Shown piece by piece: positions 11,680 through 44,793 of a DNA stretch of 64,000 bases (the first letter of the stretch is position 1; each line of letters starts with the position of its first letter). Origin of the DNA: Blautia sp. (GTDB taxonomy: Bacteria; Bacillota; Clostridia; Lachnospirales; Lachnospiraceae); NCBI GenBank assembly GCA_017463155.1, contig JAFTPT010000020.1, positions 1 to 64,000 of the forward strand, written 5' to 3'. Below the pieces are notes generated by a model that was given only the letters and a program-made list of their open reading frames with translations, had not been told where the DNA came from and ran no database searches. A program made the position numbers and the translations under genes.

Positions 11680-11705
11680 CGTTTGCGGCCCCGTCAGAGT
11701 TGCTA

Positions 11706-11735
11706 TTGTCAGCGATCGGGTGCACATGGTATAAT
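11706..11735 (+). promoter_or_regulatory. Predicted promoter of the cobalamin biosynthesis operon
   Basis: TTGTCA, 18 bp, consensus TATAAT. Only about 20 bp separate the likely transcription start from the cbiD start codon, so there is no room for a cobalamin riboswitch. Confidence 0.65.
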
Positions 11736-11760
11736 AGCGGATGTGACAGGAGGTGGGGTT

Positions 11761-12918: not shown

Positions 12919-12922
12919 ACAC

Positions 12923-13681: not shown

Positions 13682-13692
13682 GGCAGGGAACG

Positions 13693-14772: not shown

Positions 14773-14796
14773 CCGCTTTTGATGGAGGACTGTAAT

Positions 14797-15528
14797 TTGA
14801 GTAAAATGTACGTTGTCGGGATCGGTCCCGGCGCTTATGAACAGATGACCGGCAAAGCCATCCGTGCGCTGCAGGAGAGCGACGTGATCATCGGTTATAC
14901 GGTCTATGTGGATCTGGTAAAAGAATATTTCCCGGATAAGGAATTCATGACCACGCCCATGAAAAAAGAAGTGGACCGCTGCGTGCTTGCCTTCAAGGAG
15001 GCCCAGAAGGGCAAAAATGTGTCCATGATCTGCAGCGGCGATGCCGGCGTCTACGGCATGGCGGGACTGATGTACGAGGTCGGTGCCTCCTATCCGGACG
15101 TGGAGATCGAGATCATCCCGGGCGTCACGGCGGCCCTGGGCGGCGCTTCGGTGCTGGGAGCTCCCCTGATCCACGATTTCTGCCTGATCAGCCTGAGCGA
15201 CCTGCTGACTCCGTGGGAAAAGATCGAGACCAGGCTTCTCTGTGCTTCCCAGGCTGACTTTGTGATCTGTCTGTACAATCCGTCCAGCCACAAGAGGCAT
15301 GATTACCTGCAGAAAGCCTGTGACCTGATGCTCCGGTATAAATCACCGGAGACCGTCTGCGGGATCGTGTCCAATATTGCCCGGGAAGGCGAAGAATACC
15401 AGATCATGACGCTGAAGGAACTCCGGGATACGCAGGTCGATATGTTCACCACGGTCTTTATCGGCAATTCCCAGACGAAGGAGCTTTCCGGAAAGATGGT
15501 CACGCCCAGGGGATACAAGGGCGTTTAG
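14797..15528 (+). CDS. cbiH: Precorrin-3B / cobalt-factor III C17-methyltransferase
   Basis: Ring-contraction methyltransferase (CobJ/CbiH), 243 residues, with the motif MYVVGIGPGAYEQMT at the N-terminus, SGDAGVYGMAG in the middle and CLYNPSSHKR later. I chose the TTG at 14797 because GGAGG (14784-14788) is 8 nt upstream. The in-frame ATG at 14782 overlaps that site and would add five unsupported residues; ATG 14806 is an alternative. It is expressed with cbiG, about 24 bp upstream. Confidence 0.93.
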   Translation: MSKMYVVGIGPGAYEQMTGKAIRALQESDVIIGYTVYVDLVKEYFPDKEFMTTPMKKEVDRCVLAFKEAQKGKNVSMICSGDAGVYGMAGLMYEVGASYPDVEIEIIPGVTAALGGASVLGAPLIHDFCLISLSDLLTPWEKIETRLLCASQADFVICLYNPSSHKRHDYLQKACDLMLRYKSPETVCGIVSNIAREGEEYQIMTLKELRDTQVDMFTTVFIGNSQTKELSGKMVTPRGYKGV

Positions 15529-15536
15529 GAGGATCC

Positions 15537-17495
15537 ATGTACAAAGTGATCGTATTTGCAGGAACGACAGAGGGGTATGACATCTGCCGGTTTCTGAAAA
15601 AGCACGGGATCAGGACCTGTGCCTGCGTGGCGACGGATTACGGAACCCGGTCCCTCACGGAAAATGAGGATCTGACGATCCGGGCCGCACGCCTGACCGA
15701 AGAGGAGATGCATGCGTTCTTTCTCGAGGAGCAGCCGGAGCTCGTGATCGATGCCACACACCCCTACGCGGCCGTCGTAACGGAGAATATCCGGGAAGCC
15801 TGCAAAGACTTTCCGGAAAGGTATGTCCGCGTCCTGCGTCAAGAAGGGGAGCACACCTCGGATGCGGTCTATGTCGAGAATACGGAGGCGGCCGTCGAGT
15901 ATTTGAAGAATACGACAGGAAATGTCCTCCTGACGACCGGCTCCAAGGAGCTGAAGGCCTATACGGAGGTTCCGGATTACGAGAACCGGCTGTACGCCAG
16001 AGTCCTTTCGCTTCCGGGCGTTATGACCTCCTGTGCCGGACTGGGGTTTGAAGGAAAACACCTGATCGGCATGCAGGGCCCGTTCTCGCGGGAACTGAAC
16101 GAAGCCATGCTGCGGCAGCTTGACTGCCGGTACCTGGTCACAAAGGATACCGGAGCCGCGGGCGGTTTTCAGGAAAAGATCGAGGCGGCACATGCATGCG
16201 GGACGATCCCGGTGATCATCGGGCGCCCGACAACCGAAGAGGGCATCTCGGTCCGGGAGTGCAAAAAGCTTTTGTCGGAGCACTTTTCCCTGACACTGAT
16301 CCCCCGGGTGACGCTCCTCGGGATCGGCATGGGAAGTCCTGCGACGCTTACGCAGGAAGCCCTTGAAGTCCTGTCGGAGGCGGATCTGGTGATCGGGGCC
16401 AGACGGATGGCAGATGCTGTCAGGCAGCCCCACCATGAGATTTTGTACGAGTACCGGAGCGACGTGATCGCTGCCTATATCCGTGAGCATCCATGGTATG
16501 AGCACATCGTGATCGCGCTTTCGGGGGACGTCGGGTTTTACAGCGGAGCCCGGAAGCTTTTAGATCTTTTGGGACCGTCCGTAAGGGTCGTCTGCGGTAT
16601 CTCTTCGGTGGTCTATTTCATGGCAAAAACCGGTCATTCCTGGGATGACGCGAAGATCGTAAGCGCCCACGGGCGCAGCTGCAATCTGATCCCGCTCATC
16701 CGTCATAACCGCAAGGTCTTTTCCATCCTGGGTACGACGGACGGCGTCCGGAATCTGGCTAAGAAGCTGGTGACCTACGGGATGGGGGACGTGCTTCTGT
16801 ATGTAGGCGAGAATCTTTCCTACAAGGAGGAGAAGGTTTTCTGCCGGAAGGCCTGCGAGCTCACGGAATACGAAGGGGATGCCCTTTCCGTTATTCTTGC
16901 TTACAATGAAAACGCAGTGAAGATGCGCACCACCCACGGATTGCCGGACGAAGAGTTCCTGCGGGGCAAGGCTCCCATGACCAAGGAGGAGGTCCGCACG
17001 GTTTCTCTTTCCAAGCTGCAGCTTACCGAGGATTCCATCTGCTACGATATCGGTGCCGGCACCGGCTCCGTATCCATCGAGATGGCCCTCCGGGCTTCCC
17101 AGGGAAAGGTCTATGCCATCGAGAAAAAAGACGATGCGCTGGAGATCCTGGGCAGGAACAAGGAGCATTTCGCCGCCGACAATATGGAGATCATCGCCGG
17201 CACGGCGCCGGATGCGATGGAGGAACTGCAGGCCCCGACCCACGCGTTCATCGGAGGCTCCTCCGGAAACCTGGACCGGATCGTGCAGCTGCTTCTTTCT
17301 AAAAACCCTCACGTCCGGATCGTGATCAACTGTATCACGCTTGAAACGGTGTCCGAGGCGCTCGCTGTTATAAGGGAGCATTCCTTTACCGGGACGGACG
17401 TGGTGATGCTTTCCGCGGCCAGGTCAAAGGAAATCGGCCGCTATCATATGATGATGGGGGAAAACCCGATCTATATTATCACCCTGCAGGGGTAG
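15537..17495 (+). CDS. cobK-cbiE-cbiT: Fused CobK (precorrin-6A reductase), CbiE and CbiT methyltransferases
   Basis: One 652-residue polypeptide carries three consecutive activities. Residues 1-257 match CobK/CbiJ reductase (VIVFAGTTEG, IDATHPYA, LLTTGSKEL). Residues 258 to about 455 match the cobalt-precorrin-7 C5-methyltransferase CbiE (VTLLGIGMGSPATLT, ALSGDVGFYSGA). Residues from about 462 match the C15-methyltransferase/decarboxylase CbiT (GLPDEEFLRGKAPMTKEEVR, then DIGAGTGSVSIEMA). AGGAGG overlaps the cbiH stop codon, so translation is coupled. The frame is continuous. CbiET fusions are common; the triple fusion is known from some Clostridia and may channel intermediates. Confidence 0.93.
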   Translation: MYKVIVFAGTTEGYDICRFLKKHGIRTCACVATDYGTRSLTENEDLTIRAARLTEEEMHAFFLEEQPELVIDATHPYAAVVTENIREACKDFPERYVRVLRQEGEHTSDAVYVENTEAAVEYLKNTTGNVLLTTGSKELKAYTEVPDYENRLYARVLSLPGVMTSCAGLGFEGKHLIGMQGPFSRELNEAMLRQLDCRYLVTKDTGAAGGFQEKIEAAHACGTIPVIIGRPTTEEGISVRECKKLLSEHFSLTLIPRVTLLGIGMGSPATLTQEALEVLSEADLVIGARRMADAVRQPHHEILYEYRSDVIAAYIREHPWYEHIVIALSGDVGFYSGARKLLDLLGPSVRVVCGISSVVYFMAKTGHSWDDAKIVSAHGRSCNLIPLIRHNRKVFSILGTTDGVRNLAKKLVTYGMGDVLLYVGENLSYKEEKVFCRKACELTEYEGDALSVILAYNENAVKMRTTHGLPDEEFLRGKAPMTKEEVRTVSLSKLQLTEDSICYDIGAGTGSVSIEMALRASQGKVYAIEKKDDALEILGRNKEHFAADNMEIIAGTAPDAMEELQAPTHAFIGGSSGNLDRIVQLLLSKNPHVRIVINCITLETVSEALAVIREHSFTGTDVVMLSAARSKEIGRYHMMMGENPIYIITLQG

Positions 17496-17501
17496 ATACG
17501 A

Positions 17502-17521
17502 TGTCCTTGCTCATAAGGACA
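17502..17521 (+). promoter_or_regulatory. Intercistronic hairpin before cbiA
   Basis: TGTCCTT pairs with AAGGACA over a 6-nt loop just before the cbiA ribosome-binding site. There is no T tract, so it is not a terminator; it may affect mRNA processing or translation. Confidence 0.3.
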
Positions 17522-17534
17522 ACAGGAGACAGAC

Positions 17535-18929
17535 ATGAAGATTCCCAGAATACTATTGACCGCCGGGGCCAGCGGCAGCGGCAAGACCATGCTCACCTGC
17601 GGCCTTCTGCAGGCGCTCGTGGACAGGAACAAAGACGTCGCGTCGTTTAAATGCGGCCCGGACTATATCGATCCCATGTTCCACAGCCGTGTGATCGGGA
17701 CCAGTTCGTGCAATCTGGATACCTTTTTTACGGACAAGGAGACAACACAGTATCTTCTGTGCGAGCATGGGAAGGACAAGGATATCTGCGTGATGGAGGG
17801 CGTGATGGGCTTCTATGACGGCCTCGCGGGCATCAGCGTCATGGCCAGCGCCTATGACCTGGCCGTGACCACAAAGACGCCGGCCGTACTCATCGTGAAC
17901 AGCCGGGGCATGAGCGTTTCCCTGGCCGCCTACATCAAGGGCTTTCTTGAATATATGCCGGATAACCCGATCAAAGGCGTGATCTTTAACCAGATGTCCG
18001 AGATGCTGTATCCCCGTATGAAGAAGATGATCGAGGATCAGCTGCCCGTACGGGTGCTCGGGTATGTGCCCAGGCTTACGGAAGGCATTCTCGAAAGCCG
18101 TCACCTGGGCCTTGTGCTGCCGGACGAGGTCGAAGGACTCCGGGATACCTTAAAGGATCTGGCTTCCATCATGGAGAAAACGGTGGACATCGACGGCCTG
18201 CTGCAGCTTGCCGGCGAGGCGCCTGAGATCGATTGTGATGAACAGGAACTGCTGAAAAAGAAGCCGGTGCTTTCCTTCCGGACAAAAGAGAAGGTCCGCA
18301 TCGGCGTGGCCTCGGATGAAGCGTTCTGCTTTTTCTATGAAGACAACTTCAGGCTCCTTCAGAAGATGGGGGCGGAACTGATATACTTTTCCCCGATCCA
18401 CGACAGACATCTTCCGGAAGGTCTGGACGGTCTGCTGCTCTATGGAGGGTATCCGGAGCTGTATGCAAAGGAGCTTTCTGAAAACAGCACCATGCTTTCC
18501 GACATCCGGAACGCCATTTCAGGGAACATGCCCGTGATGGCGGAGTGCGGAGGGTTCATGTATCTGCACCGGAAGATGGAGGATACAGAAGGAAACAGCT
18601 ATGAGATGGCAGGCGTGATCGACGGAGAGGTCCGCCACACCCATAAGCTCAGCCGTTTCGGGTATGTGACCCTTCAGGGAGGCGATACCGAGGTCTTCGG
18701 TACCCCCTTTACCTGGGAGATCCCGGCCCATGAATTCCACTATTTTGATTCGTCCAGCTGCGGGGAGTGCTTCTTCGCAAAGAAGCCCTTAAGCAAGCGC
18801 GGATGGAACTGTATACATGCAGGCAGGACCATGCTGGCCGGTTTTCCGCATCTGTACTATTACGGCGCGCCGGAAGTCCCGGCAGCATTTCTGAAGGCCT
18901 GTGAAGCCTACGGACTGGAGAAAAAATGA
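17535..18929 (+). CDS. cbiA: Cobyrinate a,c-diamide synthase
   Basis: ATP- and glutamine-dependent amidation of the a and c side chains. The 464-residue protein has the P-loop ASGSGKTMLTCGL near the N-terminus, FKCGPDYIDPMFH and MEGVMGFYDG of the synthetase domain. The class I glutamine amidotransferase-like domain follows, with the catalytic Cys in MAECGGFMYL and the His region in HEFHYF. AACAGGAGA precedes the ATG. The 3' end overlaps cbiB (ATGA type), indicating coupling. Confidence 0.95.
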   Translation: MKIPRILLTAGASGSGKTMLTCGLLQALVDRNKDVASFKCGPDYIDPMFHSRVIGTSSCNLDTFFTDKETTQYLLCEHGKDKDICVMEGVMGFYDGLAGISVMASAYDLAVTTKTPAVLIVNSRGMSVSLAAYIKGFLEYMPDNPIKGVIFNQMSEMLYPRMKKMIEDQLPVRVLGYVPRLTEGILESRHLGLVLPDEVEGLRDTLKDLASIMEKTVDIDGLLQLAGEAPEIDCDEQELLKKKPVLSFRTKEKVRIGVASDEAFCFFYEDNFRLLQKMGAELIYFSPIHDRHLPEGLDGLLLYGGYPELYAKELSENSTMLSDIRNAISGNMPVMAECGGFMYLHRKMEDTEGNSYEMAGVIDGEVRHTHKLSRFGYVTLQGGDTEVFGTPFTWEIPAHEFHYFDSSSCGECFFAKKPLSKRGWNCIHAGRTMLAGFPHLYYYGAPEVPAAFLKACEAYGLEKK

Positions 18930-19909
18930 TGATGCTATATCGTGTTCTGGCTTTGCCGGCCGGATGTCTTCTGGACTTTATCCTTGGTGATCCCGCCTGG
19001 CTGTATCACCCGGTGATCCTGATCGGAAAGCTGATCAGCCTTCTGGAAGAAAAGATCAGGCCCCATTTTTCAAAATCGAAGACAAGCGAGCTGCTTGGCG
19101 GCCTCGTCGAGGTGGCTGTGGTATGCCTGGTCTGCTTCGGCCTTCCCTGGCTTGTGATCGAATACCTGTACCGGCTGTTTCCGGTCGTTGCCTTTATCCT
19201 CGAGAGCTTTCTGTGCGGTCAGCTGCTGGCGGCAAGATCCCTGCAGAAGGAGAGCATGAAGGTCTACGATGCGCTGAAGCACGGGACGCTCGAAGATGCA
19301 AGGCACGCGATCTCCATGATCGTCGGAAGGGATACGCAGAGCCTGACGGAAAAAGGGATCATAAAGGCGGCCGTGGAAACGATCGCGGAGAACACCTCCG
19401 ACGGCGTGACGGCCCCGATGCTCTTCATGGCGATCGGCGGACTGCCGTTCATGTTCCTCTACAAGGGCATCAACACGATGGATTCCATGCTGGGCTACAA
19501 GAACGAGAAATACCTGTACTACGGGAGATGCGCGGCCAAGCTTGATGATCTGGCCAACTACATTCCCGCAAGGGTGACGGCCTTTGTCATGATCCTGGCC
19601 TGCGGTATGTGCGGGCTTGACGCGAAAATGGCCGAGACGATCCACAAAAGGGACCGGAAAAAGCATGCCAGCCCGAATTCCGCGCAGACGGAGTCGGTCA
19701 TGGCCGGCGCACTTCACGTGCAGCTGGCGGGAGACGCATACTATTTCGGCAAAAAATATGAAAAGCCGACCATCGGCGACGACATCCGCCCCATTGAGGC
19801 GGAGGATATCAAAAAAGCCAACCGGCTGATGTTTGCGACCAGCTTTCTATGTATGATCCTGTTTACGCTGATCTCGCTGGTCATCCGGGTGGCAGGAGGA
19901 CTGTTATGA
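18926..19909 (+). CDS. cbiB: Adenosylcobinamide-phosphate synthase
   Basis: Membrane enzyme that attaches aminopropanol or its phosphate to adenosylcobyric acid. The 327 residues have several hydrophobic segments and the family motifs DFILGDPAWLYHPVILIGK near the start, VAETIAENTSDGVTAP-like text and PNSAQTESVMAGAL. Three ATG codons in a row overlap the cbiA stop (18926, 18929, 18932); spacing from CTGGAG slightly favours 18929. The 3' end overlaps the next gene by 4 bp. Confidence 0.93.
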   Translation: MMMLYRVLALPAGCLLDFILGDPAWLYHPVILIGKLISLLEEKIRPHFSKSKTSELLGGLVEVAVVCLVCFGLPWLVIEYLYRLFPVVAFILESFLCGQLLAARSLQKESMKVYDALKHGTLEDARHAISMIVGRDTQSLTEKGIIKAAVETIAENTSDGVTAPMLFMAIGGLPFMFLYKGINTMDSMLGYKNEKYLYYGRCAAKLDDLANYIPARVTAFVMILACGMCGLDAKMAETIHKRDRKKHASPNSAQTESVMAGALHVQLAGDAYYFGKKYEKPTIGDDIRPIEAEDIKKANRLMFATSFLCMILFTLISLVIRVAGGLL

Positions 19910-20943
19910 AGCACACCCATGGCGGGAACATCTATACCTACAGGAACTGCCTGGATTTTTCTTCGAACTGCAATCCGCTCGGGACGCCGGATTCCGTGAA
20001 GGAAGCGATCCGAAAGAGCGCGGATCTGATCATGCATTACCCGCAGGTGGAAAGCGGGGATTTGTGCAGCGCGATCGCCGCGTACGAAGGCGTAAGCGAG
20101 GAGCAGGTGATCTGCGGAAACGGTGCGGCGGAGGTGATCTTTTCCCTCTGCAGGGCACTTCGCCCCCGGAAGGCGCTTCTTCCGGCTCCGACCTTCGCGG
20201 AATATGAGCAGGCGCTCACGAGCGTGGACGCTAAGATCCTTTATTTTCCACTCAGGGAAGAACAGGATTATATACTGGATGAGACGATCCTGGACCGGCT
20301 TGTGCCCGGGATCGACATGCTCTTCATCTGCAATCCGAACAACCCGACCGGGATGCTGACGGACGGAGCGCTTATGCGGAAGCTCCTGGAGAAATGCGCG
20401 TCGAATGGCATCTTTCTGGCGGCAGACGAATGTTTTCTGGATTTTGTGGAGGGGCAGGAGAACTATACGCTCAAGAACTACCTGGACAGCTTCGGAAATC
20501 TGCTGATCCTGAAGGCCTTTACCAAACGGTACAGTATGGCGGGCGTTCGTCTCGGCTACGGGCTTTGCGGAAACGAAGAGCTGATCCGGAAGATGACCTT
20601 CCAGAACCAGCCGTGGAATGTCTCTGCGCCGGCCCAGTTGGCCGGGCTGGCCGCTCTTAAGGAAAAGGAATTTGTCGAGCAGGGCAGGAAGATGGCTTTA
20701 TCGGAAGCCGTGTACCTGAAGCATGCGATGAAAGAACTCGGGCTGCAGGTGTTTCCGTCCCAGGCGAATTATATATTCTTTAAAGGCCCGGAAGACCTGT
20801 TCAGGGAATGTGTGGAGCACGGGATCCTGATCCGGGACTGCAGCAATTATGAAGGGCTTACGAAGGGCTACTACCGGATCGCCGTCCGTTCGCATACGGA
20901 CAATGAACGGCTGATCCGGGTATTTACAGAGATACTGAAGTAA
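19906..20943 (+). CDS. cobD: Threonine-phosphate decarboxylase-like aminotransferase
   Basis: PLP enzyme of aminotransferase fold class I that in cobalamin clusters makes (R)-1-amino-2-propanol phosphate from threonine phosphate. The 345 residues start with HGGNIYTY and FSSNCNPLG. They contain ICNPNNPTG and ADECFLDF, and the PLP lysine lies in [21 protein letters not shown] 19906 overlaps the cbiB stop as ATGA; the longer frame start at 19849 lies inside cbiB and is rejected. A histidinol-phosphate aminotransferase is the main alternative, but the cbi context argues against it. Confidence 0.87.
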
Positions 20944-20957
20944 AAAGGAGGGGTATT

Positions 20958-22466
20958 TTGGCGAAGGCGATCATGGTGCAGGGTACGATGTCAAATGCGG
21001 GGAAAAGTCTCCTGGCCGCAGGACTCTGCCGGATCTTCCATCAGGACGGATATCGTACCGCACCTTTTAAATCACAGAATATGGCACTCAACTCTTATAT
21101 CACCCGGGAAGGGCTGGAGATGGGACGCGCACAGGTCATGCAGGCGGAATGCGCCGGGATCGAGCCGTCGGTCCTGATGAACCCGATCCTCTTAAAGCCT
21201 ACGAACGACGTGGGTTCCCAGGTGATCGTCAACGGGGAAGTCCTTGGAACGATGGCTGCCCGCGATTATTTTGCCTACAAAAAGCAGCTGATCCCGGAGA
21301 TCATGAGGGCCTACGACACGCTGTCGGCACAGAATGATATCCTGGTGCTGGAGGGTGCCGGAAGTCCGGCCGAGATCAATCTCAAGCAGGATGACATCGT
21401 CAATATGGGTATGGCGAAGATGGCCCATGCGCCGGTGCTTCTGGTCGGAGATATCGACCGCGGCGGCGTGTTCGCGCAGCTGCTTGGCACGGTGGATCTT
21501 TTGGAGCCGGATGAACGGGCCATGGTCAAGGGCCTCATCATCAATAAATTCCGCGGCGACAAGACCATCCTCGATCCTGGCATCGTGATGCTGGAGGAGA
21601 GGAGCGGGATCCCGGTGGTGGGCGTCGCTCCCTACCTGCAGATCCAGGTGGAGGATGAGGACAGCCTGACCGAGCGCTTCGAAGGGCACAGGGAGGCGGA
21701 TCTGATCGATATCGCGGTCATCCGGGTCCCCAGGATCTCGAATTTTACGGATTTCAATCCGCTGGAGAACATTCCCGGCGTCTCCGTCCGCTATGTCAGG
21801 TATCCCAATGAGCTGAAGGATCCCGATCTGATCATGCTTCCCGGTACCAAAAATACCATGGAGGATCTTCTGTCCCTCAGGCAGAACGGCATGGAAGCGG
21901 CGATCCTCAAGGAAGCCGCCAAGGGAAAGCTGATCTTCGGTATCTGCGGCGGGTACCAGATGCTGGGCGAGGAGCTTTCGGATCCCTACGGCGTGGAAGC
22001 CGGCGGGACGATCAAGGGAATGGGGCTTCTGCCCATGAAGACCGTCTTTACGAAGGAAAAAACAAGGACCCGGGCCATGGGAAGCTTCCGGAAGCTTGAT
22101 GGCCCCTTCGCGGCGCTCTCCGGCGCGGAGATCGACGGCTATGAGATCCACATGGGCGAGACGGTCTTTGCGGGTGAAGCCGGCTCTGCCACGTCGATCC
22201 GCGACGTTGTCTCGGGTGACGAAAAGGAGGACGGCGCGTGCCTCGGAAATGTCTGCGGCACGTATGTACACGGCGTTTTTGATACGGAGGAGGCGGCCGC
22301 CAGCCTGATCCGGGCTCTCGGCGAAAAGAAAGGCATCGATGTGACGGAGATGGCCAGCGTAGATTTCGCGGCCTTTAAGGAAACACAGTATGACATCCTG
22401 GCTTCCGAGCTTCGGAAAGCCATGGACATGGAAAAAATCTACCGTATTCTTGAGGAGGGTATCTGA
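20958..22466 (+). CDS. cbiP: Cobyric acid synthase
   Basis: Amidates the b, d, e and g side chains of adenosylcobyrinate diamide using glutamine. The 502-residue product starts with [20 protein letters not shown] (P-loop), contains KSQNMALNS and [15 protein letters not shown], and ends with an amidotransferase domain ([11 protein letters not shown] Cys; TYVHGVFD His). The start is TTG 20958, supported by AAGGAGGGG directly upstream. It is 14 bp after the preceding gene. Confidence 0.95.
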
Positions 22467-22470
22467 ACGA

Positions 22471-23112
22471 ATGAGAGTGGAGCTTGAGAATGTAAAACCC
22501 ATGGATATCGAGGGAAGAAGCTTTGAGATCATCACCGAGGAGCTGGGGGATACCCCTCTGGTCCCGGGAACAGAGCTGATCGTGAAGCGCTGCATTCATA
22601 CCAGCGCGGATTTCGATTACGCAAAGAACCTCTGCTTTTCCGAAAACGTGGTCGAGAAAGCCATCCGGGCCATCAAGGACGGGGCCTGTATCGTGACGGA
22701 CACGCAGATGGCGAAGGCCGGCATCAACAAGAAGGCGCTTTCGCGCTACGGTGGTGATGTCTACTGCTTCATGTCCGATGAGGATGTGGCGAGGATCGCA
22801 AAAGAGAACGGTTCCACCAGAGCGACCGCCAGCATGGACAAGGCGGCTGCCATGGACAAAAAGCTGATCTTCGCCATCGGGAACGCCCCGACGGCGCTGG
22901 TGCGCCTGTACGAGCTGATCGAGGACAAAAAGCTGTCCCCGGAGCTGATCATCGGTGTTCCCGTTGGATTCGTCAACGTCGTGCAGTCCAAGGAACTGAT
23001 CATGGAGACCGACGTGCCCTATATCGTGGCACGAGGACGAAAAGGCGGCAGCAACATCGCGGCCTGCATCTGCAATGCACTTCTTTACATGATCGACAAC
23101 AAACGTGATTGA
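22471..23112 (+). CDS. cbiC: Cobalt-precorrin-8 methylmutase
   Basis: Moves the methyl group from C11 to C12 to give cobyrinate. The 213 residues contain RCIHTSADFDYAKNLCFSE with the proposed catalytic His, GACIVTDTQMAKAGI, IGNAPTALVRLYELI and the C-terminal GRKGGSNIAACICNALLY. ATG 22471 follows GAGGAGGGT inside the end of cbiP. It is the last gene of the cluster and converges on the MocR-type gene with 7 bp between; no clear terminator is seen. Confidence 0.95.
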   Translation: MRVELENVKPMDIEGRSFEIITEELGDTPLVPGTELIVKRCIHTSADFDYAKNLCFSENVVEKAIRAIKDGACIVTDTQMAKAGINKKALSRYGGDVYCFMSDEDVARIAKENGSTRATASMDKAAAMDKKLIFAIGNAPTALVRLYELIEDKKLSPELIIGVPVGFVNVVQSKELIMETDVPYIVARGRKGGSNIAACICNALLYMIDNKRD

Positions 23113-37686: not shown

Positions 37687-37734
37687 TCCCGATCGATCAA
37701 AACAGAATATCATAATGGGATCCAGTGCCGGAAA

Positions 37735-37930
37735 AGGTCATAGGGCTTTTTCGGGTAAAAGGGAATCAGGTGAAAATCCTGAGCGATCCGGTCACTGTGA
37801 GCGGGGAGTATCCTGAAACCACCACTTCGGAATTCATTCCGGGGAAGGGGAAAAGGCCATTGTGCAAGTCATGAGAAGGCCAGGTACGGGATATGAAGAT
37901 CTGCGAGTCAGGAAACCTGCTGGCTCTCTG
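37735..37930 (+). promoter_or_regulatory. Cobalamin riboswitch
   Basis: Hallmark segments occur in order: GGGAATCAGGTGAAAATCC from 37761, GGTCACTGTGAGCGGGGA about 30 nt later, AAGTCATGAGAAGGCCAGG from 37866, and the B12 box GCGAGTCAGGAAACCTGC ending at 37920. An intrinsic terminator (37989-38025) sits between aptamer and gene, so control is probably by premature termination when cobalamin is bound. Controlled genes are 38077-44793. The exact 5' edge is uncertain. Confidence 0.93.
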
Positions 37931-37988
37931 TGATACGCTTCCGATGAAAGCAGAACTCACAGCCGGGAATGGTTCAACTGGATCATCT

Positions 37989-38025
37989 GAAAAGGCGTCT
38001 GCTTTTGCAGGCGCCTTTTCTTTTG
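37989..38025 (+). terminator. Riboswitch expression platform: intrinsic terminator
   Basis: A 14-bp stem (GAAAAGGCGTCTGC with GCAGGCGCCTTTTC, one wobble) with TTTT loop and trailing TTTT, 50 bp upstream of the first gene of the uptake operon. Confidence 0.88.
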
Positions 38026-38076
38026 AAATCGGGTGCTTTCCATGTACCGGCTTAAAAGAAAAAGGAGATGAACGCT

Positions 38077-41000
38077 ATGAAACGAAAGAAACTGCTAGCC
38101 ATCGTACTCGCAGCAGCCATGATGACCGTACCGGTCCTGCCGGCATTCTCCGAAGAAAATGCCACACAGGTGAAGACCGAAGCAACAGACAATAGCAGCA
38201 CCGGAACAGTAAAAGAAAAGTCCGCCGAACAGCAGAATACAGCCCAGCAGCAGACTGCTTCACAGACACCGCAGGCAGCCCCCGCGGCCCCGCAGCAGAG
38301 TACACCGGCAGAACCGCAGAAGGCTCCCGAGCAGCCTGCAGCACAGCCGCAGCCTGAACAGCCCGAAGCACAGTCACAGACAGAGAAGCCCGAAGCACAG
38401 GCGCCGGCAGAACAGCCGCAGGATACGGCCGTATCAGAGGAGACGACTCCTGCCGAAGGACCGGAAGCATCCCAGGAGAATGCGGACGGTGAGACCGCCG
38501 CTCCCGCAGAAGAGCAGACGCCGGCCATCGAAGAGACGGAAGCCCCGGCAGAAGAAGCGGCACCTGCCGAGGAAGAGAAAAAAGAAGAAAAAGAAAAGGA
38601 TAAGGAAGTCAAGGAGACCGGCACGCCGGAAGTCTTTGTAAGCGATACCCCTGTGGACAACAGCACGACGCTTGCGGACGGCACCTACACGCCGGAAGGC
38701 TTCTCCTTCAGCGCCGTCAAGAGCGGCACTGCGTCCGCCAGCTGCAGCACGGTCAAGGTGTCCGGCGGCAAGGCCACGGCCGTTCTTTCGATCAACAGTG
38801 CCGGCAAGGTCGTACATGCCGTCAAGTGGAACGGCGGAAGCAAATCCTTCGAGGTGGAAAACCCGACGGCGGAGGTCCCCGTAGACCTGAATACCGCTAA
38901 TGATCTGGCGCTCAATGTCGACATGGGTACCAGCGGCCGTACCACCGATGCGTCCTATACATTTACCGTGACGCTGACCGAAACGTCCGCAACACCGACT
39001 CCGACCGAAGCACCGACGCCCACGCCCACCGAGGAGCCGGAGCCTGAGAAGGCTGCTCCCGTGGAAGGCGATGACGGCGTGACCGTCACCAAGGAAGGCG
39101 ATACGGCCGCCTACGGCATGTTCAGCCCGACTTCTTCTTCCATCAAGGATAACGGAGATACCATCACGGTATCGATCACCTCCAACAAAAAGACCTACAG
39201 CAAGGTCTATGTCGGAACGGTCAGTGATTACAATGACGGAAAAGACGGAACGATGGTTGAAGGCGTCCCGAACACCGACGGCACCTTCAATTTCACCTTT
39301 ACTCTGCCGGCATCGGCCCGCGGCACCAGCGTGTCCATCACGCCTGTCAAACCGGACGGCGACGCCAACTCAAACTCTCTGGTAATGAACATCCCGGCGG
39401 CGGATGAACCCGAACCGACTGCCACACCGACCCCCGAAGCGACGAGTACGCCGACTCCGGCCCCGGAGAAGGAGTATGAAAACGTCAACATCGTCAAGGA
39501 TGACGACACGACCTATGCCATGATCGGTGTCGACAGCGATTCCTCCAAGGCGGTCATGTCCGGCGATGAGGTGGAAATCACCTATACGACCACAAGGGCA
39601 AATTATGACGGTCTTTTCCTGGGTACCAACGAGACCGAGAGCAAGACGCCGGTCATCGAGGGAACCGTAAGCGAAGACGGCACGCACTACACCTTTGTCT
39701 TCAAAGTATCCAAGGATGACCTCGGAAAGCGGATCCCGGTCTGCCTGAAGAACGCCGGCAAGGATGCTTTCTACAGCAAACAGCAGCTGTATCTGACGAT
39801 CCCAAAGACGGCGGAGCCTGAACCGACCGCGACGCCGACCCCGGAACCGAGCGAGACGCCGACGCCTACACCTGAGCCGACCGAGACACCGACCCCGACG
39901 CCCACCAAGGCACCTGTGACGGACATCGAAGACGGAATCTATGAAGCCAACGTGACAACGAACGCATCCATGTTCAAGGTCGTCAAGTGCGTCCTCACCA
40001 AAAAGGACGGTAAAATGACGGCCGTGCTGACGCTCAGCGGCACCGGTTATGACTATCTGTATCCGGGCACGGATGCGGAGGCCGGCAGTGCTGACAAATC
40101 ATCCTGGATCCCCTTTGATGTAGCCGAGGACGGAACCTATACCTATGAGGTACCGATCACCGCGCTGGATACCGAGATCCCGATCGCTTCCCATTCCCAG
40201 CGTCAGGACAAATGGTACGCCCGTACCATCACGCTGGATTCCGAGACACTCCGCAGACTGGACGGCGATGAGCCTGCACCGACTGCGACGCCGACCCCGA
40301 CGCCCACGCCTGCACCTACCTATAAGCCGACCACTGGCGGCGGCACCAGTGCCGTGGATTCCTCCACGAAGCTTGCCGACGGCATCTACAAGCCCGACAG
40401 CTTCAGCTGGAGCGGTGGTTCCGGACGAATGAAAGGCATCAGCTGCACACAGATCCGTGTGAGCGGCGGACATGCCTATGCAACGATCGTATTCAACAGC
40501 AGCCATATCGGCTATGTCAAGGCCAGCGGAAGCACCTATTACGGAAGCGGCGGCTCCTTTGAGATTCCTGTCAGGCTGAACGCCAACAACCGGATCCTTG
40601 CCATGACCACGGCCATGTCCCAGCCTCATGAGGTTGCCTACACCCTGTATATCGGCCTGAACGCGGCGAAGACCGCGGATGAGAAGGCGGATGAGGACAA
40701 GAATGCTAACGAGGATCTGAAGAAAGACGATACCGCACCGGAAGTGGCCGGCCTCACCTATGTAGGCACCAGCCAGGAAAAATCCGCGAAGTATTTCCGC
40801 CTGCATTACTACAACGACGGTTTCCGTATTCTCGAGATCGATACCCTGGATGACAATGGTGATGTCTTCAAGGATGCAGCAGATGTTCCTGCTACGACCG
40901 ACACGGCAGCGAATGATTCCCTTTATGATGGAGAGATTCTTACATACCTGCTGGCACCGGAAGGCAAAGACCTGCCGGCCGGCGTCGACAAGTCCATGAT

Positions 41001-41373
41001 CGTCGTGACCATTCCTGTCTCCAATGCCTTTACGGCTTCGGCGGACATCACAGACCTGATCACCTCCCTCGGAGCGGACGAGAAGGTTCCGGAATCCGGA
41101 AGCCTCGTGGACCTGGTCTTCCGTGACCTGGTGACCGGACATAACGATCTTCTGATCGCACCGGCTTCCATCGTTGGAGAAGAGGCGGAGGATGAGACCT
41201 CTGTGAACAAGATCCAGGAGCTGGGCGATGCGCTGAGCCTTCTTAAGATCCCGATGATCCTGGACCGCTCCGCGGATGAAAAAGAAGAAGCCGGCAGCAA
41301 AGAATGGGCGAGAGTTTACGGTACCTTGTTCGGAGCAGAAGAAAAAGCCGAAGAGCTTCTGAAGAACAACTGA
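38077..41373 (+). CDS. Riboswitch-controlled secreted multi-module protein with half periplasmic-binding domain (putative corrinoid capture protein)
   Basis: 1,098 residues. Signal peptide (KRKKLLAIVLAAAMM, then PAFS) followed by a long Pro/Gln/Glu-rich stretch (to about 190). Five Ig-like modules separated by Thr/Pro linkers follow. Modules at about 194-303 and 757-864 resemble each other (STxLADGxYxP and YTLYIGL/YTFTVTL ends). Modules at about 335-441 and 466-578 resemble each other. One at 613-731 holds YDYLYPGTDAEA. Residues from about 885 match the N-terminal lobe of the next gene's binding protein (TAPEVAGLTY; YLLAPEGKDLPAGVDKS; EWARVYGTLFGAE) and then stop, so the second lobe is absent. 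No anchor is visible. Function is inferred from riboswitch and operon. AAAGGAG supports ATG 38077. Confidence 0.85.
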   Translation: MKRKKLLAIVLAAAMMTVPVLPAFSEENATQVKTEATDNSSTGTVKEKSAEQQNTAQQQTASQTPQAAPAAPQQSTPAEPQKAPEQPAAQPQPEQPEAQSQTEKPEAQAPAEQPQDTAVSEETTPAEGPEASQENADGETAAPAEEQTPAIEETEAPAEEAAPAEEEKKEEKEKDKEVKETGTPEVFVSDTPVDNSTTLADGTYTPEGFSFSAVKSGTASASCSTVKVSGGKATAVLSINSAGKVVHAVKWNGGSKSFEVENPTAEVPVDLNTANDLALNVDMGTSGRTTDASYTFTVTLTETSATPTPTEAPTPTPTEEPEPEKAAPVEGDDGVTVTKEGDTAAYGMFSPTSSSIKDNGDTITVSITSNKKTYSKVYVGTVSDYNDGKDGTMVEGVPNTDGTFNFTFTLPASARGTSVSITPVKPDGDANSNSLVMNIPAADEPEPTATPTPEATSTPTPAPEKEYENVNIVKDDDTTYAMIGVDSDSSKAVMSGDEVEITYTTTRANYDGLFLGTNETESKTPVIEGTVSEDGTHYTFVFKVSKDDLGKRIPVCLKNAGKDAFYSKQQLYLTIPKTAEPEPTATPTPEPSETPTPTPEPTETPTPTPTKAPVTDIEDGIYEANVTTNASMFKVVKCVLTKKDGKMTAVLTLSGTGYDYLYPGTDAEAGSADKSSWIPFDVAEDGTYTYEVPITALDTEIPIASHSQRQDKWYARTITLDSETLRRLDGDEPAPTATPTPTPTPAPTYKPTTGGGTSAVDSSTKLADGIYKPDSFSWSGGSGRMKGISCTQIRVSGGHAYATIVFNSSHIGYVKASGSTYYGSGGSFEIPVRLNANNRILAMTTAMSQPHEVAYTLYIGLNAAKTADEKADEDKNANEDLKKDDTAPEVAGLTYVGTSQEKSAKYFRLHYYNDGFRILEIDTLDDNGDVFKDAADVPATTDTAANDSLYDGEILTYLLAPEGKDLPAGVDKSMIVVTIPVSNAFTASADITDLITSLGADEKVPESGSLVDLVFRDLVTGHNDLLIAPASIVGEEAEDETSVNKIQELGDALSLLKIPMILDRSADEKEEAGSKEWARVYGTLFGAEEKAEELLKNN

Positions 41374-41401
41374 GAAAGCATTGTCCCGAAAAGGAGAAAT
41401 G

Positions 41402-42607
41402 ATGAATATCCGATTTACAAAAAAGAACGGCAGGAGGGCGGCGGCGTTCGCCCTCGCCGCCGTACTGACGCTCGGCGGCTCGGTCTTCGGACCGGCCGCC
41501 TATGCGGAGGAAGAGGAACTGGATGAGGTTTCCGTCACGGCCGACGTGGACCGCACAGCGCCTGAGATTGACGGCCTGACCTACGAGTCCACCATGGAAC
41601 TGACATACGCGGACCGCTTTGACGTATTCTATTATGAAGGCGGCTACAAATTTATCCGCGTTTATGACGGGTCGGACTACCTGCTCGTGCCGGAAGGCGC
41701 TGAAGCTCCGGCGGGCCTTTCTTCGGACGTCCGCGTCCTGTACGCGCCGCTTACCAACATCTATCTGGCAGCCACCTCCGCGATGGCGCTCTTTGACTCC
41801 ATCGACGCGCTGGACACCATCCGTCTCTCCGCGCTGAACGCGGATGGATGGTACATCGACAATGCAGTCACGGCGATGGAGAACGGAGATATCCTGTTCG
41901 CCGGCAAATACAGTGAGCCGGACTATGAGCTTCTGATCAACGAGAACTGTTCCGTGGCTATCGAGTCCACGATGATCCTGCATACCCCGAAGGTGCAGGA
42001 GATGATCGAAAACATGGGCATCCCGGTCTTTATCGACCGGTCCAGCTATGAGAGCCATCCTCTCGGCCGGACCGAGTGGGTCCGTCTCTACGGTGCTCTC
42101 GTCGGTAAGGAAGACCAGGCGGCCGCCTTCTTCGAGGACCAGGCGAAGGTCATGTCCGACCTGAAGGATTTCCCGAATACCGAAAAGACCGTCGCTTTCT
42201 TCTTTATGAGTACGGACGGTTCGGTGGTCGTCAGGCGTCCCGAGGATTACATTCCCAAGATGATTGAGATCGCCGGAGGGCGCTATGTCCTCACGGATCT
42301 GGAAGTGGGGGAGACCAAGCGTACATCCGTGTCCATGACGATGGAAGATTTCTACGCCAGGGCGATCGACGCGGATTACCTGATCTACAATTCAACGATC
42401 GACGCACCCGTGAACTCTCTCGACGAGCTTCTGCAGAAGAGTGCCCTGTTCGCCGATTTCAAAGCTGTCAAGGACGGAAACGTCTGGAATGCCGGAAAAT
42501 ACCTGTACCAGGCTACCGACATCGTCGGACAGCTGATCCGGGACATCAACCATATGCTGACGGACGGGGACGAGGCCAACATGATCTTCCTGTCAAAGAT
42601 ACAGTAA
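41402..42607 (+). CDS. btuF: BtuF-like ABC transporter substrate-binding protein
   Basis: 401 residues: an N-terminal signal segment ending near PAAYAEEEE, then a class III (FecB/BtuF-type) binding fold. Recognisable parts are YEGGYKFIRVYDGSDYLLVPE, IGIPVF-like NMGIPVFIDRSS, EWVRLYGALVGKEDQA, VVRRPEDYIPKMIEIAGG and the closing GNVWNAGKYLY. Operon position (riboswitch, permease, ATPase) indicates cobalamin or other corrinoids. No lipobox Cys is present, which is unusual for a Gram-positive binding protein; the signal segment may stay as an anchor. ATG 41402 follows AAAGGAG; 41399 is an alternative. Confidence 0.87.
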   Translation: MNIRFTKKNGRRAAAFALAAVLTLGGSVFGPAAYAEEEELDEVSVTADVDRTAPEIDGLTYESTMELTYADRFDVFYYEGGYKFIRVYDGSDYLLVPEGAEAPAGLSSDVRVLYAPLTNIYLAATSAMALFDSIDALDTIRLSALNADGWYIDNAVTAMENGDILFAGKYSEPDYELLINENCSVAIESTMILHTPKVQEMIENMGIPVFIDRSSYESHPLGRTEWVRLYGALVGKEDQAAAFFEDQAKVMSDLKDFPNTEKTVAFFFMSTDGSVVVRRPEDYIPKMIEIAGGRYVLTDLEVGETKRTSVSMTMEDFYARAIDADYLIYNSTIDAPVNSLDELLQKSALFADFKAVKDGNVWNAGKYLYQATDIVGQLIRDINHMLTDGDEANMIFLSKIQ

Positions 42608-42633
42608 TGCGTTTTATTGCAAGAGGATAACCT

Positions 42634-43692
42634 ATGTCTAACCAAGCTGCTGAAGGCCGCACAAGCTTTCACATGGAAAACTTTAAAAGAAGGACCAGGT
42701 ATACGGTCGTGTTTGTGGTCCTGATCCTGGCTGCCTTCGTGATCACGGTGCTGAACATCAATACCGGTTCCACCAACATTCCGGTCGGACGGATCCTGTC
42801 GATCATATTCAAGGGAACCGGGGATCCGACCGAGTACAATATCATCTGGAAGATCCGTCTTCCGAGGGTATTGATGGCAGCGATCCTCGGGGGAGGGCTC
42901 TCCGTATCGGGCTTTCTTCTGCAGACCTTCTTCGGAAATCCGATCGCGGGACCTTTTGTCCTGGGTATTTCCTCCGGAGCCAAGATGCTGGTCGCGCTGA
43001 CCATGATCTATTTCCTGCAGTATTTCGGGTCCGTTTCATCCTACGCGCTGATCATTGCCGCATTTGTAGGAGCACTTATCTCCACGGGCTTTATCCTGCT
43101 GATCTCGCGCCGGATGAAGCATATGGCGACGCTCCTGGTGGCCGGTATCATGATCGGCTACATCTGTTCGGCCGTGACCGATTTTATCGTGACCTTTGCC
43201 GAGGATTCGGACATCGTCAACCTGCACGGCTGGTCGCTCGGAAGCTTTTCCGGCGCCACCTGGGGAAATGTACAGATTTCGGCCGTGATCATCGGCATCA
43301 CGATGATCTGCGCGTTCCTGATGTCCAAGCCCATCGGTGCATACCAGCTGGGCGAAGCCTATGCCCAGAGCCTCGGCGTCAACATCAAGATATTCCGGAT
43401 CATGCTGATCCTCATGTCCAGCGTGCTGTCCGCCTGCGTGACGGCTTTTGCAGGTCCTATCTCCTTTGTCGGCATGGCGGTCCCGCATCTGATCAAGACT
43501 GGACTCAATACCTCCAAGCCGGTCGTCGTGATCCCCGGGATCTTTCTTGGCGGATCCGTGTTCTGTATGATGTGCGATCTGATCGCCCGTACGGCATTTT
43601 CGCCGCTGGAGCTGAACATCAGTACCGTGACGTCGGTCTTCGGCGCGCCGGTCGTGATCGTGATGCTCCTGAACAGGCAGAAAGGACGATGA
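42634..43692 (+). CDS. btuC: FecCD/BtuC-type ABC permease
   Basis: 352 residues, strongly hydrophobic, about ten transmembrane helices. Family motifs are RLPRVLMAAILGGGLSVSGFLLQ, FFGNPIAGPFVLGISSGA, the coupling region GEAYAQSLGVNI and FAGPISFVGMAVPHLI. It forms the channel of the corrinoid importer with the adjacent ATPase. GAGGA lies before ATG 42634. The stop is 3 bp before the ATPase start, so the genes are coupled. Confidence 0.93.
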   Translation: MSNQAAEGRTSFHMENFKRRTRYTVVFVVLILAAFVITVLNINTGSTNIPVGRILSIIFKGTGDPTEYNIIWKIRLPRVLMAAILGGGLSVSGFLLQTFFGNPIAGPFVLGISSGAKMLVALTMIYFLQYFGSVSSYALIIAAFVGALISTGFILLISRRMKHMATLLVAGIMIGYICSAVTDFIVTFAEDSDIVNLHGWSLGSFSGATWGNVQISAVIIGITMICAFLMSKPIGAYQLGEAYAQSLGVNIKIFRIMLILMSSVLSACVTAFAGPISFVGMAVPHLIKTGLNTSKPVVVIPGIFLGGSVFCMMCDLIARTAFSPLELNISTVTSVFGAPVVIVMLLNRQKGR

Positions 43693-43695
43693 CCG

Positions 43696-44793
43696 ATGGC
43701 TGAGAATTATATGAAAACAGAAAGCCTTTCCGTCGGTTACAACGGCAAGGCCCTGATCCATGACATCTGTCTGGACATCCGGAGCGGTGAGATCGTGACG
43801 CTGATCGGCCCCAACGGGGCAGGCAAATCCACGATCCTTAAAAGTATTACGCGCCAGCTGCAGATCATCGGGGGAAACGTGACCATCGCGGGCAAAAACC
43901 TGCATTCCCTGTCCTACAAGGAGCTTTCGACAAAGATGTCCGTCGTGCTGACCGAGCGGATGAAGCCCGAGCTCATGACCTGCCACGACATCGTGGCGAC
44001 CGGGCGGTATCCCTACACTGGACGGCTGGGTTTTCTGACGCCTGAGGATGAGGAAAAAGTGGATGCCGCCATGGCGGCCGTCCATGCGGAGGATCTCGGG
44101 AACCGGGATTTCAACGCCATCAGTGACGGCCAGAGGCAGCGTGTCCTTTTGGCCCGGGCGATCTGCCAGGAGCCGGAGATCATCATTCTCGATGAGCCGA
44201 CCTCATTCCTGGATATCCGGCACAAGCTTGAACTTCTGTCGATCCTTCGCTCCATGGCCAAGGAAAACGGCATCACCGTCATCATGTCCCTGCATGAGAT
44301 CGACCTCGCGCAGAAGATCTCCGACAAGATCATCTGTGTCAAAGGAGACCATATCGCGCACTACGGCGAACCGGAGAGCATTTTCGAGGAGAATACCATA
44401 CGGGATCTTTACAGCATCGACAATGGTTATTTTGATCCGGTGTTCGGGAGCCTGGAGCTTCCGAAGCCCGAGGGCGAGCCGAAGGTGTTTGTGCTTTCCG
44501 GCTGCGGGAGCGGAATCCCCGTCTTCCGAAGGCTCCAGAAGAAGAACATTCCCTTCGCCGCGGGTATTCTGTATACGAATGACGTGGACTATCAGCTGGC
44601 CCGGCTTCTCGCCGCAGAGGTGGTCACCGAAAAACCCTTCATGCCGATCTCGGAAGAGGCCTTTACAAGGGCTGCCGGATTGATCAGAAAGTGTGAGCGC
44701 GTCATCAACGCAGGCTTTCCGGAAGGGGAGGGCAATTGCCGCATGAAGGAGCTGATCGCCATGGCCGGTGACAAGATCGATCAAAATTCATGA
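43696..44793 (+). CDS. btuD: BtuD-like ABC ATPase with C-terminal extension
   Basis: 365 residues. The nucleotide-binding domain (1 to about 250) has Walker A GPNGAGKST, a variant signature ISDGQRQR in place of LSGGQ, Walker B IIILDEPTSFLD and the switch His in MSLHEIDLA. After it comes an extension of about 110 residues (GEPKVFVLSGCGSGIPVFRR onward, ending NCRMKELIAMAGD) not needed for a basic BtuD. It is found with the importer under the cobalamin riboswitch. The extension has a Rossmann-like alternating pattern; its role is unknown. Confidence 0.9.
   Translation: MAENYMKTESLSVGYNGKALIHDICLDIRSGEIVTLIGPNGAGKSTILKSITRQLQIIGGNVTIAGKNLHSLSYKELSTKMSVVLTERMKPELMTCHDIVATGRYPYTGRLGFLTPEDEEKVDAAMAAVHAEDLGNRDFNAISDGQRQRVLLARAICQEPEIIILDEPTSFLDIRHKLELLSILRSMAKENGITVIMSLHEIDLAQKISDKIICVKGDHIAHYGEPESIFEENTIRDLYSIDNGYFDPVFGSLELPKPEGEPKVFVLSGCGSGIPVFRRLQKKNIPFAAGILYTNDVDYQLARLLAAEVVTEKPFMPISEEAFTRAAGLIRKCERVINAGFPEGEGNCRMKELIAMAGDKIDQNS

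What the first reader, a model, noticed from the sequence alone, without database searches (positions are those of the whole stretch)
37735..44793. Riboswitch-controlled cell-surface corrinoid capture system
A textbook cobalamin riboswitch with terminator precedes a 1,098-residue secreted modular protein, then binding protein, permease and ATPase. The known Gram-negative equivalents (BtuG/BtuH surface corrinoid binders) have no described Firmicute counterpart with this architecture as far as I know. The modular protein is a good candidate for extracellular corrinoid capture and hand-over.
Basis: partly seen in the sequence, partly recalled or inferred. Interest (0 to 1): 0.82.

Follow-up and report, generated by a model that had tools for sequence, protein, structure and literature searches.

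The report
B12-switched NEAT-like relay for cobalt tetrapyrroles
Common gut bacteria that make vitamin B12 carry, under a B12-sensing RNA switch, secreted proteins related to heme-grabbing domains next to a B12-type importer and usually an exported cobalt-inserting enzyme, which suggests that a cobalt-loaded B12 precursor or corrinoid is captured outside the cell membrane.

Summary
A cobalamin riboswitch (Rfam RF00174, 84.7 bits) and a strong hairpin precede a 1,098-aa secreted modular protein, a substrate-binding protein, a BtuC-like permease and a BtuD-like ATPase. The modular protein has no Pfam hit above cut-off, but relatives of its modules are distant NEAT domains (50 of 63 aligned segments match PF05031 at E<=0.01; the window's does not). 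Its C-terminus is a degenerate half of the neighbouring binding protein.

The link to B12 is strong. Of the best 80 of 281 named loci found by protein similarity, 68 have the riboswitch upstream. Plain corrinoid capture is not the best fit, though. In 293 Clostridia-class genomes the modules occur almost only in corrin makers (17 of 19 have CbiD, against 72 of 274). They often sit with cbi genes and usually follow or are fused to an exported cobaltochelatase, CbiK. In 37 CbiD-bearing genomes an exported CbiK is the only CbiK/CbiX found.

My reading is an Isd-like NEAT relay re-purposed for a cobalt tetrapyrrole, probably a precursor metalated outside the membrane, less likely a finished corrinoid. 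At the expected NEAT Tyr-ligand position, A modules carry His in 118 of 139.

The parts
37706..37938 (+). cobalamin riboswitch aptamer RF00174
   Evidence: cmscan 84.7 bits, E 2e-19; own model R1, which it helped to build, 136 bits
37989..38020 (+). intrinsic-terminator-like hairpin (14 bp) upstream of the first gene
   Evidence: fold -25.6 kcal/mol, z -5.88; not listed by the consensus scan
38077..41373 (+). secreted modular protein, 1,098 aa: signal peptide, low-complexity region, modules A1-B1-B2-B3-A2, half binding protein (C)
   Evidence: ORF; modules by iterated HMMs
38671..38991 (+). module A1 (degenerate A type; ligand motif not matched)
39118..39366 (+). module B1
39520..39780 (+). 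module B2
39919..40242 (+). module B3 (B type, WY motif)
40366..40662 (+). module A2 (A type, AMSxPHExxY motif with His at the supposed NEAT-ligand position)
40729..41370 (+). C domain: degenerate N-lobe half of the neighbouring binding protein
   Evidence: 27% identity over 229 columns, E 3e-20 for this single comparison; E195, M198 and H201 of the binding proteins (numbering of the 408-aa ORF from 41381) each replaced in 18 of 19 C-type rows
41402..42607 (+). substrate-binding protein (Peripla_BP_2; weak IsdE match), signal-peptide-like start without lipobox Cys
42634..43692 (+). FecCD/BtuC-type permease
43696..44793 (+). BtuD/FecE-type ATPase with C-terminal extension
11683..23112 (+). anaerobic corrin-ring synthesis cluster in the same window: cbiD, tetrapyrrole methylases, cbiG, cbiJ plus methylase, two CbiA/CobQ-type genes, cbiB, aminotransferase, cbiC
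   Evidence: Pfam; CbiD and CbiC of G000

Best explanation
The locus is the capture-and-import half of an Isd-like relay re-purposed from heme to a cobalt tetrapyrrole in corrin-making Clostridia (window genus: Blautia group, inferred). Low cobalamin lets the riboswitch read through. NEAT-like modules outside the membrane bind the tetrapyrrole. The half-binding-protein C domain may dock the modular protein near the binding protein or transporter. The binding protein takes the ligand and the BtuCD-type transporter imports it. The ligand most likely receives its cobalt outside the membrane from the exported cobaltochelatase CbiK, which heads most relatives of this operon; in the window's genome it sits behind a second cobalamin riboswitch about 80 kb away. 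The ligand then feeds the cbi pathway. Shown by sequence: riboswitch, gene order, remote NEAT kinship, exported CbiK, fusions, link to CbiD. Inferred: ligand identity, cobalt insertion outside, direction of hand-over.
For: (1) Riboswitch upstream of the module gene in 68 of 80 named loci (the best 80 of 281 relatives); 2 further sites lay downstream. Rfam gathering hits in 39 of 60 hand-picked loci. (2) NEAT kinship: 50 of 63 aligned segments match PF05031 at E<=0.01, best 6.9e-11. A profile search of the PDB put NEAT structures first (4h8q/4h8p E 5e-4, 3sik 0.012). (3) A CbiK homologue is upstream of or fused to the module gene in 69 of 79 named loci, nearly all with signal-peptide-like or lipoprotein starts and kept chelatase motifs. 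Single genes join CbiK to modules (e.g. L137, L144, L180) or modules to the binding protein (L160, L164). (4) In 293 class genomes 17 of 19 module-bearers have CbiD against 72 of 274 others, Fisher p 5e-8, with no correction for kinship. In 11 of those 17, module and CbiD lie within 7 kb. (5) An exported CbiK is the only CbiK/CbiX hit in 28 of 47 CbiD-positive named genomes and 9 of 17 class genomes. (6) A-module ligand position: His in 118, Tyr in 8, Leu or Val in 5 of 139 distinct modules; 8 had no motif match. (7) Own genome: exported CbiK plus a one-module protein behind another cobalamin riboswitch.
Against: The window's own B3-A2 segment has no Pfam match at E<=0.01. No structure could be predicted. 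The HxxxY/YxxxY equivalence rests on the motif: the hhalign global alignment sets the Tyr pair two residues off, and the PDB profile hits align mainly the N-terminal half of A modules. Insertion outside needs metal-free precursor outside, and the candidate ABC-2 exporter at >=75% identity is in only 3 of 19 module-bearing class genomes. A genome titled Pseudoflavonifractor sp. MSJ-30 (L150; RefSeq record, not marked as a MAG) has the whole operon but no CbiD or CbiC hit, as do two MAGs (L147, L162). The window's genome also has a CbiK without signal peptide. Five of the 19 module-bearing class genomes are of one genus. CobN-type chelatases were not searched.
Confidence: 0.5

Rival explanations
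1. One reading: the modular protein captures finished corrinoids (cobalamin, other cobamides, cobinamide) outside the cell and hands them to a BtuFCD-type importer.
For: Cobalamin riboswitch; BtuC and corrinoid-ATPase models among the best hits; L150 and two MAGs with the operon lack CbiD and CbiC hits, so a finished corrinoid would be usable there while a precursor would not.
Against: Strong bias to corrin makers (17 of 19 against 72 of 274); position next to cbi genes; regular pairing with an exported cobaltochelatase, whose known substrate is metal-free sirohydrochlorin (passage in PMC7242693); a separate BtuFCD-type set in the same genome.
Confidence: 0.3
2. Cobalt scavenging: exported CbiK and modules bind Co2+ or cobalt complexes and the importer delivers cobalt, with no tetrapyrrole crossing the membrane.
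For: Cobalamin riboswitches often control cobalt uptake (recalled); one operon relative is followed by CbiM-like cobalt ECF genes (L140, by eye); all near-complete genus genomes searched have corrin genes (32 of 32 for CbiD and for CbiC).
Against: NEAT domains and FecCD/BtuC importers characteristically handle macrocycles or siderophores (recalled); His or Tyr is kept where NEATs put the ligand of a bound macrocycle's metal (by motif).
Confidence: 0.12
3. Heme or iron acquisition: ordinary NEAT hemophores that happen to be under B12 control.
For: Kinship to PF05031 and a weak IsdE match of the binding protein (E 8e-6, far below its cut-off); the 105 binding proteins aligned keep an invariant Met and His, and Met/His are IsdE's axial ligands (passage in PMC7815599), though the positions were not shown to correspond.
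Against: Cobalamin riboswitch in 68 of 80 loci, cbi gene neighbourhood, exported cobaltochelatase; YxxxY in only 8 of 139 A modules.
Confidence: 0.06

Closest known systems
Isd heme relay (IsdA/B/C/H NEAT proteins with IsdE, IsdF)
   Same: Surface or secreted NEAT-type domains in several copies, a Peripla_BP_2-type binding protein and a FecCD-type permease (passages in PMC7815599).
   Different: Cobalamin riboswitch, cobaltochelatase partner, no sortase motif seen, YxxxY mostly replaced by HxxxY, half binding protein fused to the receptor.
BtuG/BtuH surface B12 binders of Bacteroides
   Same: Extra extracytoplasmic proteins tied to B12 import loci (search listing and starts of abstracts).
   Different: No DUF4465 Pfam hit here, Gram-positive hosts, tied to corrin synthesis.
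Desulfovibrio cbiK-cbiL plus btuCDF riboswitch operon; periplasmic CbiKP
   Same: A B12 element controls cbiK-cbiL and btuCDF (passage in PMC545781). A periplasmic CbiKP that binds haem is recalled; of it I saw only a title in a reference list.
   Different: I know of no NEAT-like proteins there (recalled, not searched). Here an exported CbiK is often the only CbiK/CbiX found in CbiD-bearing genomes.
Clostridial NEAT group lacking YxxxY (PMC4143258)
   Same: NEAT-related domains in Clostridia with a changed ligand motif (passages).
   Different: The terms cobal, B12, Blautia and Ruminococcus do not occur in that paper's main text.

Membership tests
NEAT (PF05031) | Pfam profile match over the curated cut-off | tested here: not met
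   Window segment: no match at E<=0.01. L088 relative 30.3 bits against 32.8. Matches at E<=0.01 in 50 of 63 aligned segments; their bit scores were not shown.
NEAT (PF05031) | YxxxY heme motif on the last strand | tested here: not met
   Window A2 has HxxxY. A modules in all: His at the first position 118, Tyr 8, Leu/Val 5, no motif match 8, of 139. B modules of alignment A3 lack it.
NEAT (PF05031) | Immunoglobulin-like eight-strand fold | not testable with these tools
NEAT (PF05031) | Heme binding | not testable with these tools
   Needs purified protein.
Isd system | NEAT receptor with IsdE/IsdF-like importer | tested here: inconclusive
   Architecture present; IsdE model 25.3 bits against a 298.65 cut-off.
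Isd system | Sortase-anchored receptor | tested here: not met
   The 1,098-aa protein ends in the C domain and shows no LPXTG on reading.
BtuCDF B12 importer | NCBIfam BtuC / corrinoid ATPase equivalog cut-off | tested here: not met
   BtuC 208.7 against 334; PRK09536 209.5 against 537. Pfam FecCD and ABC_tran are met.
Cobalamin riboswitch RF00174 | Gathering score | tested here: met
   84.7 against 31.5 bits.
CbiK cobaltochelatase (partner protein) | PF06180 match and conserved chelatase motifs | tested here: met
   E 4.4e-74 for the own-genome exported copy. GHGT/GDHA motifs present in those printed; exceptions L111, L132, L134. Their role as active-site residues is recalled.
BtuG/BtuH | DUF4465 or related Pfam domain | tested here: not met
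   No such hit.

The most novel reading that the evidence does not exclude
In many corrin-making gut Clostridia cobalt is inserted into the B12 precursor outside the cytoplasmic membrane by an exported CbiK. The cobalt-tetrapyrrole is then passed along NEAT-like domains with a His in place of the Tyr ligand and re-imported through a BtuCD-type transporter, so the precursor ring works as its own cobaltophore.
Probability: 0.35. Interest if true: 0.92.

Novelty: new variant of a known kind. Interest (0 to 1): 0.74.

Why it matters
It would extend NEAT relays from heme to B12 chemistry. It would also explain uncharacterised secreted proteins in common gut genera: records titled Blautia wexlerae, B. 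luti, Coprococcus comes, Ruminococcus and Oscillibacter are among the 80 loci. It raises a question that can be tested directly: where do these B12 makers insert cobalt, given that the only CbiK/CbiX-type chelatase found in many of them is exported?

Tried and rejected
Rejected: (a) the modular protein as an autotransporter- or adhesin-like match (YfaL, 22.2 bits against 1459, E 2.4e-5) and the PDB hit 9cca (E 0.025, largely a proline-rich stretch). (b) Chance co-occurrence of riboswitch and gene: about 0.8% expected per locus within 5 kb upstream, reckoned from 10 sites in this genome, against 68 of 80. (c) An obligatory tetrapyrrole exporter: the ABC-2 permease of the cbiL/hemC cluster is found at >=75% identity in 3 of 293 class genomes, all three module-bearing and one the window's own, so it is linked but not general.

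Led nowhere: hhalign against NEAT sequences gave moderate support only (probability 58 and 87 for A, 85 and 88 for B, global and local). PDB profile alignments of A modules stop before the ligand strand. Structure prediction, and with it fold search, was not available. I did not search for CobN, nor for CbiK/CbiX in corrin makers that lack the modules, so 'exported CbiK only' has no outside control. Signal peptides were judged by hydrophobicity and eye, not by a dedicated predictor. The 60 loci L031-L090 were picked by hand from the printed, cut list. The named set is the best-scoring 80 of 281, and the RNA model R1 was built from riboswitches of L031-L089 and the window, some of them the same genomic places as named loci (e.g. 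L032 and L101), so the class sample is the more independent test.

Mended on re-checking: the count of C-type rows that lose E195, M198 and H201 is 18 of 19 each; the named genomes with only an exported CbiK are 28, not 27, since Coprococcus comes (G101) has a single exported copy away from the module operon; the account of the Rfam recheck was corrected.
Full report
OBSERVATION. The window holds a full-length cobalamin riboswitch at 37706-37938 (+), 84.7 bits against a gathering score of 31.5 and the only Rfam gathering hit in 64 kb. A 14-bp hairpin at 37989-38020 folds at -25.6 kcal/mol, better than all 200 shuffles, although the consensus scan did not list it. The first gene encodes 1,098 aa with a signal-peptide-like start and Pro/Thr-rich linkers. 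A Peripla_BP_2 protein, a FecCD permease and an ABC ATPase follow. BtuC is the best NCBIfam model for the permease; for the ATPase FecE and a corrinoid ATPase score alike; all are well below their equivalog cut-offs. The word 'surface' is not shown: I see no lipobox or LPXTG, no wall-binding Pfam domain was found, and the window's binding protein also lacks a lipobox Cys.

ANATOMY OF THE MODULAR PROTEIN. Iterated HMMs divide it into A1, B1, B2, B3, A2 and a C-terminal C domain. The B model also matches A modules, so the types are related. C aligns with the first half of the neighbouring binding protein (27% identity, E 3e-20) and ends before that protein's second half. In 105 distinct binding proteins Met198 and His201 (numbering of the 408-aa ORF from 41381) are invariant and Glu195 is kept in 103. 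In 19 C-type rows each of the three is replaced in 18, while Glu224, Glu232, Trp233 and Tyr237 are kept in all 19; one of the 19 rows (L179) is a contig-end fragment. My inference is that C is a ligand-free docking lobe.

KINSHIP. No Pfam family above cut-off covers the window protein. A relative's A module scores 30.3 bits for NEAT, just under the 32.8 cut-off. Of 63 aligned B-A segments (the window's and 62 from named loci), 50 match NEAT at E<=0.01, best 6.9e-11, but the window's does not. Of 17 A modules on their own, 10 match. A profile search of PDB sequences returned NEAT structures first. NEAT domains bind heme through YxxxY: the first Tyr binds the iron and the second hydrogen-bonds to it (passages, PMC4143258; PMC7815599). 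Among 139 distinct A modules the residue four before the conserved Tyr is His in 118, Tyr in 8 and Leu or Val in 5; 8 had no motif match, among them A1 of the window. The alternation of His and Tyr at one place suggests a metal-ligand position. This rests on the motif: hhalign's global alignment is two residues off there, and the PDB profile alignments stop earlier.

GENOMIC CONTEXT, NAMED SET. One scan of genome contigs with alignment A1 gave 281 relatives, of which the best 80 were kept. Their titles include Blautia wexlerae, B. luti, B. massiliensis, Coprococcus comes, Agathobaculum, Ruminococcus, Oscillibacter, a Christensenella and one Spirochaetia MAG. A covariance model built from 29 riboswitches of the window and L031-L089, some of them the same places as named loci, found the riboswitch at >=35 bits upstream on the same strand in 68 of 80 loci, median 1.35 kb before the module gene, with 2 sites downstream. 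Of the 12 without, 5 have a weaker upstream match of 18-26 bits (L132, L133, L172, L173, L178), 4 start close to a contig end (L120, L136, L157, L158) and 3 have none (L110, L129, L131). Rfam's own model confirmed all 6 weaker-scoring counted loci that I rechecked (L123, L124, L134, L141, L162, L165); in L172 it found only an opposite-strand site, and in L132, L133, L136, L173 and L178 nothing. A CbiK homologue lies upstream of or fused to the module gene in 69 of 79 loci where a module ORF was delimited, and a binding protein lies within 2 kb downstream or fused in 71 of 79. Permease and ATPase were not found nearby in 19 and 18 of 79, partly because the contig ends and partly because they sit divergently beyond a second riboswitch (e.g. 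L139, L148). Eleven loci carry the long C-ended protein of the window's kind, and eight of these have no CbiK in the operon, like the window.

THE EXPORTED COBALTOCHELATASE. These CbiK proteins have signal-peptide-like or lipoprotein starts, judged by hydrophobicity and eye, and those printed keep the GHGT and GDHA motifs; exceptions are L111, L132 and L134, of which L111 and L134 have no such start. Three scanned ones match PF06180 at E 3e-71 to 4e-74. Fusions tie them to the rest: CbiK with modules, and modules with the binding protein. In the window's genome the exported CbiK (403 aa) and a one-module protein stand behind a different cobalamin riboswitch on the same contig, about 80 kb away. 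A second CbiK without signal peptide is present too. So the window's operon looks like one half of a split system.

LINK TO CORRIN SYNTHESIS. In 293 genomes of the class, drawn with completeness of at least 90%, A1 modules were found in 19 and CbiD in 89. CbiD was present in 17 of the 19 and in 72 of the other 274, Fisher p 5e-8 without correction for kinship; five of the 19 are of one genus. The exceptions are G330 and the weak hit G412; G338, with CbiD, is also weak. In 11 of the 17, module and CbiD lie within 7 kb on one contig. Ten loci were read: in eight (L181-L188) exported CbiK and/or modules, with or without binding protein, permease and ATPase, are followed by cbi genes (CbiD, others by eye); the riboswitch model scores >=45 bits in 8 of the 10 and 28 bits in L183 and L190. 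In the genus, CbiD was found in 55 of 60 and CbiC in 54 of 60, and in 32 of 32 near-complete genomes each. The window itself holds cbiD to cbiC at 11683-23112, 15 kb before the operon. Across 69 genomes (19 class, 50 named) CbiK was counted; each CbiX hit fell on a gene already counted as CbiK, and in G360, perhaps also G148, that gene is really CbiX-like. An exported CbiK is the only copy in 28 of 47 CbiD-positive named genomes (27 in the module operon, one elsewhere, G101) and 9 of 17 class genomes. One more (G120) has its start cut off and was not counted. Some module-bearers have only a cytosolic copy (G100, a CbiO-CbiK fusion; G103; G338). MAG gaps may inflate the first number; the class genomes are more complete.

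MECHANISM. [quoted passage not shown] If the only such enzyme is outside, cobalt insertion, a tetrapyrrole-binding NEAT-like relay and a BtuCD-type importer form a consistent cycle under B12 feedback. How the metal-free ring gets out is unknown. An ABC-2 exporter with cbiL-like, cytosolic cbiK and hemA/hemC-like genes and a membrane-anchored NEAT-like protein exists in some genomes (L128, L134, by eye; L046), but at >=75% identity in only 3 of 19 module-bearing class genomes. Finished corrinoids remain the chief rival, best supported by L150.

NOVELTY. Searches of the open library listed no paper whose title or abstract start joins NEAT domains with cobalamin, or exported CbiK with Clostridia. 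The lists were capped (e.g. 15 of 151 papers), I read passages of six papers only, and subscription papers are missing. The nearest precedents are Desulfovibrio's cbiK-cbiL with btuCDF under one B12 element and its CbiKP (title in a reference list only). I file this as a new variant of a known kind: it works like an Isd relay, and strict NEAT membership of the window's modules was tested and not met.

Noticed in passing
window 11683-23112 +: Anaerobic corrin-ring synthesis cluster (cbiD to cbiC) in the same window; no riboswitch was found in the window before it.
   Followed up: partly
L210 2032-3705 -, L140 13124-14699 +: CbiK fused behind a CbiO-like cobalt-transporter ATPase (557 aa in L210); other 557-573 aa open frames with CbiK in the genus may be the same.
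   Followed up: no
L139, L148, L156, L161, L166, L169 near 5.0-5.6 kb; L147 near 2.4-3.0 kb: Divergent pairs of cobalamin riboswitches: one before CbiK and modules, the other before a permease and ATPase on the opposite strand.
   Followed up: no
L049 5197-12330 +, L061 4058-8712 +: 1,379- and 1,441-aa module proteins behind cobalamin riboswitches; in L049 a FeoA/FeoB-like gene follows (by eye).
   Followed up: no
L128 1835-14780 +: One long gene run behind a cobalamin riboswitch with exported CbiK, CbiL-like, ABC-2 exporter, cytosolic CbiK, anchored NEAT-like protein, importer, HemA-like and HemC-like genes (by eye).
   Followed up: partly
L091 10196-13387 +: Own genome: a cobalamin riboswitch before a second, short binding protein, permease and ATPase of BtuFCD type.
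   Followed up: partly
L094, L096, L098, L097: Own genome: other cobalamin riboswitches lie near oligopeptide/nickel-type ABC operons and a glycyl-radical-enzyme-like gene (by eye).
   Followed up: no
window 23-4858 +: 1,611-aa protein with Listeria-Bacteroides repeats (PF09479) at the start of the contig.
   Followed up: no
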